In this document: one piece after another, positions 40,631 through 41,656 of the stretch
Layout: the number at the start of each line of letters is the position of its first letter
Numbering within the stretch: position 1 is the first letter of the stretch
Source: a virus
Direction: 5' to 3' (one strand)
DNA length: 47,960 bases
IMG/VR virus record: IMGVR_UViG_3300010300_000024
Location: 1 to 47,960 of that record
The notes under the pieces: model-generated
What the model was told of the DNA's origin: nothing
Seen by the model: only the letters and a program-made list of their open reading frames with translations
The model's database searches: none
Position numbers and translations under genes: made by a program

Positions 40631-41656
40631 TCACACCTCCATGTCTAGTGTTTGCAGTGTCGCTTTGATAAATGCTGCGGCTACTTGAGGGACGATGGCG
40701 TTCCCGTAGGCGCGCAGTCGTCCCACTCGGTTGGTAATCCCATCAGCCAGCGGGAGTGTGCCGGGTTCAACTGGCCTGAAATCGGTTTGGTTGGGGTCTC
40801 GTGGGTTTCGGCAAGGCACCCACTCGCAATCACTCCAAAAACCTGCCGTGGTAGCTGGTCGTCCCTCGGCACTCCGTTTGCCCGATGGGTCGCCATTCCC
40901 GGCGTGTCCTTGTGGTCGCGTTTCGTTGGCGTCACCCAGCCCACAAGCTTGACCTGATGAGACAGCAGGGTCACCGACTGTCCGCACGGGTATCGTTCCT
41001 TGCGTTTGAGCGCTGCCTCTGGGCTCCCGCCGAACTCCTGTGCTGTCGGCGTGCCCCACGCTACCAGCCGAGCCACCCCGAGCAGCTTCAAGCTGGGCGG
41101 CTTTGTCTTGTCGCCCCTGCTGTAGCTGTACGCGGAGCCCTTCGAGTCGTTCTTCACTGGCGACGGCCACCCAAAAGAGGCGCTGTCGGATGTGCGGCGC
41201 ACCGAGGCCCGCAGCGCACATATCGGCAGCCCCGACGGCATATCCCAGTGTTTCCATTTGAGCGCGTACAGTGTCGAACCAGCGCCGTCCGTCAGGGCTC
41301 GCAACTTGCTCTCCAAAGACGATTGCAGGGCGGCACTTCGCGATGAGTGCGTACCATGTTGGCCACAAGTGGCGCTCGTCGTCTGTACCTTTGCGTTTTC
41401 CTGCCGTACTGAATGGTTGGCAGGGTGCCGAGCCGGTCCAGATGCTTGCGTTGTCGGGTACTCCGGCGAGTCGCAGTGCGTGAGACCACGCGCCGATGCC
41501 TGCGAAGAAGTGTGCTTGGCCATGTCCGATATCCTCCGGTGTTACGTCGCGAATGTCGCGGTGGTCGATGGTGCCAGCGGCAATGTGCCCCGCCCCTTCA
41601 AGGTTGCGGAGCCATTGCGCTGCGTAAGGTTCTATTTCGTTGTAGTATGCTGTCAT
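40631..41656 (-). CDS. C5-cytosine DNA methyltransferase with displaced motif II-III segment
   Basis: 341 residues. It transfers a methyl group to cytosine C5, probably to protect phage DNA. Motif I is [12 protein letters not shown] (50-61), motif [10 protein letters not shown] with nucleophile Cys79, motif VI GEQV (115-118, Gln in place of the usual Asn of ENV), motif [16 protein letters not shown] (153-164), and motif [13 protein letters not shown] near the C-terminus. A motif II/III-like stretch, [14 protein letters not shown]...DIRDV (6-38), precedes motif I instead of following it. A long variable region holds the target-recognition domain. No cognate restriction enzyme nearby. Confidence 0.92.
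40681..41523 (-). CDS. Overprinted 280-codon frame inside the methyltransferase gene
   Basis: A stop-free frame in another phase of the same strand, starting ATG 41523 with GGAGG (41537-41533) nine bases upstream. The product is basic, with [38 protein letters not shown], repeated [16 protein letters not shown] segments and the C-terminal [20 protein letters not shown]. From memory, similar segments are annotated repeatedly in other phages beside or within such methyltransferases, which suggests selection in both frames. Function unknown. It could still be a codon-bias artefact. Confidence 0.5.

What the first reader, a model, noticed from the sequence alone, without database searches (positions are those of the whole stretch)
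40681..41523. Overprinted 280-codon gene inside the C5 methyltransferase with its own GGAGG
A second frame on the same strand stays open for 843 bases and has an ideally spaced GGAGG (9 bases) before its ATG. The product has ordered, non-random features: repeated W-x-TPT segments and a distinctive C-terminal [16 protein letters not shown] block. I recall the same phrases in other phage annotations next to such methyltransferases. Overlapping genes under dual selection are rare and this one has no known function.
Basis: partly seen in the sequence, partly recalled or inferred. Interest (0 to 1): 0.75.

Follow-up and report, generated by a model that had tools for sequence, protein, structure and literature searches.

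The report
Hidden second subunit of phage methyltransferase
A phage DNA-methylating enzyme appears to be built from two proteins read from the same stretch of DNA in two frames, with the hidden frame supplying the part that recognises DNA; the arrangement is widespread in phages, yet half of the enzyme is usually missing from annotations.

Summary
The overlapping ORF is real and functional. It lies on the minus strand (41523..40681, +1 frame) inside a 341-codon C5-methyltransferase (41656..40631), with GGAGG 9 nt upstream. Length alone is only modest evidence (38/10,000 synonymous shuffles reach it). Conservation is decisive: all 96 viral homologues fetched carry both frames; its profile score is 308 bits against 96±13 for recoded controls; four-fold sites of the host gene fall from ~0.57 divergence upstream to mostly 0.08-0.21 inside the overlap. 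In the variable region the substitution pattern is that of the +1 frame, while single-chain relatives keep frame 0.

It is not functionless. Its C-terminus [16 protein letters not shown] is C5-methyltransferase motif IX, preceded by shuffled W-x-TP cassettes that single-chain actinophage enzymes carry in frame between motifs VIII and IX. The host frame keeps motifs I-VIII and X but lacks TRD and IX. Best reading: an alpha/beta two-polypeptide methyltransferase with nested beta, the architecture known from M.EcoHK31I. The kind is known and a few phages annotate both ORFs (K1ind2 "Mte8-like", Diva "internal gene"). New here: breadth, frame swap of the recognition region, its modular make-up, codon-level proof. 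Activity, complex formation and target sequence are untested.

The parts
40631..41656 (-). alpha: C5 DNA methyltransferase catalytic polypeptide, 341 aa, motifs I-VIII and X, no motif IX or folded TRD
   Evidence: Pfam PF00145 6e-18 over residues 67-177; phrog_363 6e-74; AF2 catalytic domain pLDDT mostly >90, residues 193-271 and 295-318 <50; Foldseek M.HhaI 9.8e-8
40681..41523 (-). beta: nested +1-frame gene, 280 aa, TRD-like cassettes plus motif IX
   Evidence: phrog_1008 2e-31; synonymous-recoding test z=16; codon-position rates
41533..41537 (-). GGAGG Shine-Dalgarno of beta, 9 nt before ATG 41523
   Evidence: sequence; 79 of 93 homologous loci have a beta start with an SD-like match upstream, often at another nearby position
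40684..41418 (-). beta core (about residue 36 to the end), the part under strong selection
   Evidence: four-fold-site divergence drops from 0.42-0.59 to mostly 0.08-0.21 from this point; both homologue stops and the N15 truncation lie upstream of it
41200..41343 (-). beta residues 61-108: predicted helix plus beta-hairpin (GSTLY.L.WK...P.G...ALRASV.RTS), overlaps alpha motifs VI-VIII
   Evidence: AF2 pLDDT 78-87; conserved in A1/A4
41059..41169 (-). beta W-x-TP cassette 1 (residues 119-155, type B)
40939..41058 (-). beta W-x-TP cassette 2 (residues 156-195, type A cluster)
40780..40938 (-). beta W-x-TP cassette 3 and linker (residues 196-248)
40705..40779 (-). beta motif [27 protein letters not shown] (residues 249-273)
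   Evidence: hhalign to motif IX of single-chain MTases, probability 95.8, E=7e-9
40841..41080 (-). alpha residues 193-272: passenger stretch (frame-0 reading of the cassette DNA), predicted disordered
   Evidence: codon-position rates of the variable region 0.344/0.140/0.107 in alpha frame; pLDDT about 40
40649..40720 (-). alpha motif X (residues 313-336, [12 protein letters not shown] and following helix)
   Evidence: invariant G318 N319 in A2/A5; helix 323-336 pLDDT >90

Best explanation
The locus encodes a two-polypeptide cytosine-5 DNA methyltransferase from one piece of DNA. Frame 0 gives alpha, the catalytic domain (AdoMet binding, PCQ loop, motif VIII, and motif X that closes the large domain). 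A ribosome-binding site inside alpha starts beta in the +1 frame. Beta is the small, DNA-facing domain: a helix-hairpin base, two to five W-x-TP cassettes in the place of the target recognition domain, and motif IX. Alpha and beta would assemble into one enzyme whose target sequence is set by beta, probably by its cassettes, and would methylate phage (or host) DNA, most likely to evade restriction. Shown: both frames conserved under selection, beta carries motif IX and the cassettes, alpha lacks them. Inferred: translation of beta, alpha-beta assembly, activity, specificity by cassettes, biological role.
For: (1) Dual coding: recoding test z = 10.9-16 in 12 loci; +1 stops 317 observed versus 605 expected in 97 genes while +2 shows no deficit. 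(2) Codon-position divergence (alpha positions 1/2/3): 0.119/0.090/0.459 upstream of beta, 0.129/0.085/0.265 over motifs I-VIII, 0.394/0.162/0.104 in the variable region, 0.158/0.097/0.228 at the C-terminus; 33 disjoint pairs agree, 28 of 32 untied pairs have position 1 > 3 in the variable region; single-chain control 0.212/0.139/0.396. (3) Four-fold sites fall from 0.54-0.59 to mostly 0.08-0.21 inside beta. (4) Beta C-terminus aligns to motif IX of single-chain MTases, E=7e-9; phrog_1008 hits window beta (2e-31), the annotated internal gene of Paenibacillus phage Diva (1e-73) and the in-frame C-terminal half of single-chain ShiLan gp70 (2e-61). (5) Alpha model: catalytic domain folds, variable stretch and motif IX position do not; it matches M.HhaI over about 187 columns. 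(6) Internal SD: rare AGG at the conserved Arg in 32 of 91 genes versus 8% of all Arg codons, p=4e-13, making AGGAG before the common beta ATG. (7) Bridging forms: split ORFs with beta carrying IX and X in +1 (L121, L128, L147). (8) Precedent: M.EcoHK31I, large subunit motifs I-VIII and X, motif IX in the small one (PMC3404938).
Against: Beta alone folds poorly in AF2 (pLDDT 59) and has no PDB or Pfam match. The profile-profile alignment covers motif IX only (25 columns); the link of the cassettes to the single-chain region rests on PHROG phrog_1008 and on the repeated W/L-x-TP pattern. The placement of motif IX on M.HhaI is collinear but not significant by itself. Three of 80 bacterial loci have an alpha stop with beta intact. 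No expression or activity data.
Confidence: 0.87

Rival explanations
1. One chain by programmed frameshift: ribosomes shift from frame 0 to +1 between motif VIII and the first cassette, giving I-VIII + TRD + IX in one polypeptide, with the unshifted product as a by-product.
For: In single-chain relatives (L099, L104-L119) exactly these parts are in one chain, and the +1 frame is the coding frame of the variable region.
Against: A shifted product would lack motif X, which stays conserved in frame 0. The +1 frame is constrained well upstream of any such shift site (alpha four-fold sites 0.08-0.21 from codon +32 after motif I) and has its own SD and ATG. No slippery site was searched for systematically.
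Confidence: 0.05
2. Beta is a separate protein with another job (regulator, anti-restriction or nuclease-like) that happens to overlap the methyltransferase.
For: No Pfam or PDB match; several records call it hypothetical.
Against: It contains motif IX and the region found in frame in single-chain enzymes, alpha lacks precisely these, and in 177 loci (97 viral, 80 bacterial) it never occurs without overlapping alpha sequence.
Confidence: 0.05
3. By-product: the +1 frame stays open and similar only because the methyltransferase protein and codon usage are conserved.
For: Recoded controls still score about 96 bits and ORF length alone gives only p = 0.004.
Against: Real scores exceed all recoded controls by more than 10 s.d.; alpha third positions are the slowest sites in the variable region, the opposite of a single-coding gene (control).
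Confidence: 0.01
4. The system is real in relatives but decayed in this phage.
For: The beta start of the window (-11 nt from motif I) differs from the commonest one (-38), and the beta N-terminus is shorter.
Against: Both frames intact, strong SD, score in the family range (307.9 bits), motif IX and all alpha motifs kept.
Confidence: 0.02

Closest known systems
M.EcoHK31I (YGGCCR), two-polypeptide C5 methyltransferase
   Same: Larger subunit has motifs I-VIII and X, motif IX is in a smaller polypeptide (PMC3404938); from memory, the small one is nested in the large gene in another frame (Lee et al. 1995, NAR 23:103, not held).
   Different: The literature places the predicted TRD in the large subunit; here the large-subunit variable region is not conserved and TRD-like cassettes are in beta. 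Beta here is 280 aa (EcoHK31I beta about 176 aa, from memory). No adjacent restriction enzyme was recognised. Sequence homology to EcoHK31I could not be tested.
M.AquI (CYCGRG), split C5 methyltransferase
   Same: Two polypeptides, part of the recognition region and motif IX in the second one (PMC3404938).
   Different: In M.AquI motif X is in beta; in the window it is in alpha. L121/L128/L147 in IMG/VR resemble M.AquI more closely.
Escherichia phage K1ind2 C-specific methylase / Mte8-like protein (ADA82428 / ADA82427)
   Same: Both overlapping CDS annotated, +1 register, 35% identical to window beta.
   Different: The record gives no function for the Mte8-like protein; two cassettes instead of three.
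Paenibacillus phage Diva gp49 / gp50 ('g49 internal gene')
   Same: Nested +1 gene in a C5 methyltransferase; gp50 matches phrog_1008 at 1e-73.
   Different: Distant; alpha lacks the YYNE-type N-terminus.
Mycobacterium phage ShiLan gp70, single-chain C5 methyltransferase
   Same: LLPTPxxxDG cassettes, motif IX and motif X.
   Different: All in one frame; codon-position rates confirm frame 0 in the variable region of this type.
Multispecific Bacillus phage methyltransferases (SPbeta/phi3T type; from memory)
   Same: Several small recognition cassettes in the variable region between motifs VIII and IX.
   Different: Single chain; one target per cassette is shown there, not here.

Membership tests
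C5 DNA methyltransferase (PF00145) | Catalytic motifs I, IV (PCQ), VI, VIII | tested here: met
   alpha, Pfam 6e-18, invariant PCQP and GEQ in A2/A5
C5 DNA methyltransferase (PF00145) | Motif X | tested here: met
   alpha [13 protein letters not shown] and N invariant
C5 DNA methyltransferase (PF00145) | TRD and motif IX in the same chain | tested here: not met
   alpha variable region unconserved and predicted disordered; motif IX is in beta. The enzyme as a whole, not alpha alone, would fulfil the definition
Two-polypeptide nested C5 MTase (M.EcoHK31I type) | Large chain with I-VIII and X, motif IX in a second polypeptide from an overlapping frame | tested here: met
Two-polypeptide nested C5 MTase (M.EcoHK31I type) | Both polypeptides needed for methylation | not testable with these tools
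   needs expression and assay
Two-polypeptide nested C5 MTase (M.EcoHK31I type) | Sequence homology to M.EcoHK31I alpha/beta | not tested
   its sequence was not identified in the collections used; original paper not held
M.AquI-type split MTase | Motifs IX and X both in beta | tested here: not met
   motif X is in alpha
PHROG phrog_1008 | Profile match over most of the protein | tested here: met
   2e-31, residues 5-273 to positions 18-284 of 329
Multispecific TRD-array MTase | Variable number of exchangeable recognition cassettes | tested here: inconclusive
   2-5 cassettes, 34 arrangements in 69 loci, same types at different positions; that each cassette is a TRD is not shown

The most novel reading that the evidence does not exclude
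A large, deeply diverged class of phage C5 methyltransferases consists of obligate two-frame enzymes: the recognition domain has moved to the +1 frame as a cassette array that phages shuffle to change or combine specificities, while the annotated frame through that region is a passenger kept open only to reach motif X.
Probability: 0.5. Interest if true: 0.75.

Novelty: new variant of a known kind. Interest (0 to 1): 0.62.

Why it matters
Annotation usually keeps only one of the two frames, so many phage and prophage cytosine methyltransferases in databases lack their recognition half or are called hypothetical. Expressing alpha alone would be expected to give an inactive enzyme, which would mislead functional screens and target-site prediction. 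The set (single chain, split, nested) is also a natural series in which a domain changes reading frame inside its own gene, so dual-coding constraint can be measured against single-coding controls, and cassette swaps would give a direct test of how phages change methylation specificity.

Tried and rejected
Chance ORF / codon-usage by-product: rejected. Unrelated overprinted protein: disfavoured by motif IX and the phrog_1008 link. AF2 of beta alone: low confidence, so no fold search was run on it. PDB sequence search with the beta profile: nothing. Paper searches for earlier accounts of nested MTase genes in phages: none found among the open papers held; PMC11855218 describes a different out-of-frame element (an HNH endonuclease in ShiLan gp65). 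Lee et al. 1995 (EcoHK31I) is not held. Freestanding beta without alpha: none in 97 viral and 80 bacterial loci. These loci were nearly all found with beta as query, so the rate of alpha-only relatives was not measured.

Full report
OBSERVATION. The ORF is as described: minus strand 41523..40681, 280 codons from ATG, inside the C5 methyltransferase 41656..40631 in the +1 frame, with GGAGG 9 nt before the ATG. The window is a whole 47,960-base IMG/VR virus record. It encodes terminase, portal, major head protein, endolysin, DnaB-like helicase, RecE-like exonuclease and an integrase, so it looks like a temperate tailed phage.

IS IT CHANCE? Shuffling synonymous codons of the methyltransferase keeps its protein and codon usage. 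An equally long +1 opening appeared in 38 of 10,000 shuffles, so length alone is modest evidence. Sequence content is strong evidence: the +1 translation scores 307.9 bits against a profile of homologues less than 55% identical, against 95.9 +/- 13.2 for recoded versions; 11 other loci give z = 10.9 to 15.8. The 96 bits in recoded controls show how much similarity the host protein confers for free, so tblastn E-values of the alternative frame (227 phage records) must be discounted.

SELECTION IN BOTH FRAMES. I fetched 16 annotated phage loci and 80 IMG/VR loci. All 96 plus the window have the methyltransferase with the second ORF in the same +1 register. Alpha third positions are beta second positions, and alpha first positions are beta third positions. 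Divergence at alpha positions 1/2/3 was 0.119/0.090/0.459 upstream of beta, 0.129/0.085/0.265 over motifs I-VIII, 0.394/0.162/0.104 in the variable region and 0.158/0.097/0.228 in the C-terminal part (397 pairs). With 33 disjoint pairs the variable region gives 0.344/0.140/0.107, and position 1 exceeds position 3 in 28 of 32 untied pairs. Single-chain actinophage relatives give 0.212/0.139/0.396 there. So in the variable region the +1 frame is the coding frame and the annotated methyltransferase frame is close to a passenger. Four-fold-site divergence is 0.54-0.59 upstream, 0.39 at the beta start, 0.42-0.53 for the next 40 codons or so, and then drops to mostly 0.08-0.21 (exceptions: one bin at 0.49 and the last at 0.38). 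Beta's first ~35 residues are therefore weakly constrained: the only two stops in 97 loci lie there (L068, L079), and phage N15 begins beta further in, with its own GGGAGGA signal.

START SIGNAL. 79 of 93 loci have a beta start preceded by at least 4 nt of SD match; the commonest such ATG lies 38 nt before motif I (47 loci). The conserved Arg codon that makes AGGAG is the rare AGG in 32 of 91 genes against 8% of all Arg codons (p = 4e-13). The window uses a different ATG, 27 nt further in, with GGAGG.

WHAT BETA IS. Alpha has motifs I-VIII and X, but between them frame 0 is unconserved, and AF2 leaves residues 193-271 and 295-318 disordered around a confident catalytic domain that matches M.HhaI over about 187 columns. 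The missing pieces are in beta. Profile-profile comparison aligns [25 protein letters not shown] to NPRLAPAFSEWMMGWPAGWVTEVPG, which precedes motif X in single-chain mycobacteriophage-type enzymes (E=7e-9); the same stretch falls on the M.HhaI motif IX position, collinear though not significant alone. Those enzymes carry LLPTPxxxDG cassettes in frame before it. PHROG phrog_1008 matches window beta (2e-31), Diva gp50 annotated 'g49 internal gene' (1e-73) and residues 196-388 of single-chain ShiLan gp70 (2e-61). Intermediate layouts exist: a ~180-aa frame-0 ORF followed by a +1 ORF with cassettes, IX and X (L121, L128, L147; M.AquI-like), and a 250-aa alpha family with a very different nested beta (L150-L178), whose post-VIII rates 0.300/0.111/0.189 also favour the +1 frame. 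Beta cassettes number 2-5 and occur in 34 arrangements in 69 loci, with the same types at different positions, which suggests shuffling.

MECHANISM. Most likely alpha is the large catalytic domain and beta the small DNA-recognition domain, translated from an internal site and assembled into one enzyme. Shown: sequence, homology and selection. Inferred: translation, assembly, activity, specificity, and the role (probably evading restriction; the same phage has a Mom-like DNA modification gene at 45962-46372). Precedent: M.EcoHK31I, whose larger subunit has motifs I-VIII and X with motif IX in the smaller (PMC3404938); that literature places the predicted TRD in the larger subunit, unlike here. 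[quoted passage not shown]

KNOWN OR NEW. The kind is known, and some phage records annotate both ORFs. I found no open paper describing the class in phages, but the library is partial. The breadth (227 phage records; 203 relatives in a bacterial genome scan, of which all 80 kept loci carry both genes, 75 of them clean), the frame swap of the recognition region, its cassette make-up and the codon-level proof appear to be new. I file it as a new variant of a known kind and do not claim homology to M.EcoHK31I, whose sequence could not be compared.

LIMITS. The related loci were collected mostly with beta as query, so the share of alpha genes without beta is unknown. Beta's structure is not resolved. 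Region boundaries for the rate tests were set by motif searches that succeeded in 71-72 of 97 loci. Pairs are not independent; the disjoint set shares no locus between pairs.

Noticed in passing
window 45962-46372, minus strand: Mom-like DNA modification protein (phrog_1384, 8e-26): the phage carries a second DNA-modification gene. A genome search reports two stops inside the wider family match.
   Followed up: partly
L150-L178 (IMG/VR), e.g. L150 from about position 1500: 250-aa methyltransferases whose +1 frame is open for about 246 codons and encodes a very different beta (SWKT.QCSLLEDL..FSETWPKWG..LPTPVAS..FSEWMMGWP.GWTDLKPLE): a second nested family.
   Followed up: partly
L121, L128, L147 (IMG/VR); Gordonia phage GordDuk1 gp28/gp29 (L100): Split methyltransferases: motifs I-VIII in one ORF, motif IX plus X (with cassettes in the IMG/VR cases) in a following ORF (M.AquI-like).
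   Followed up: partly
L098:3001-3800 (Salmonella phage SAP012, NC_053008): Alpha and nested beta both open but neither is annotated in the record.
   Followed up: yes
L262:1492-2661 (E. coli cS100a chromosome): RefSeq annotates an intact alpha as two incomplete pseudogene pieces and omits beta, which is open.
   Followed up: yes
L226, L232, L238 (bacterial genomes): Alpha interrupted by a stop while beta stays intact; in L226 the stop is in the passenger variable region.
   Followed up: partly
L004 (Pseudomonas phage PMG1): Alpha frame is shifted near its N-terminus; only beta is annotated (as DNA methyltransferase, similar to Mte8-like).
   Followed up: partly
window 41659-42105, minus strand: The gene immediately upstream of alpha (its stop lies 2 nt before the alpha ATG) has a weak HicB-like match (4e-4); alpha may be translationally coupled to it.
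   Followed up: no
L104-L118 (actinophage MTases): Single-chain methyltransferases show near-identical LLPTP cassettes in different orders and numbers (2-5), also suggesting cassette shuffling.
   Followed up: partly
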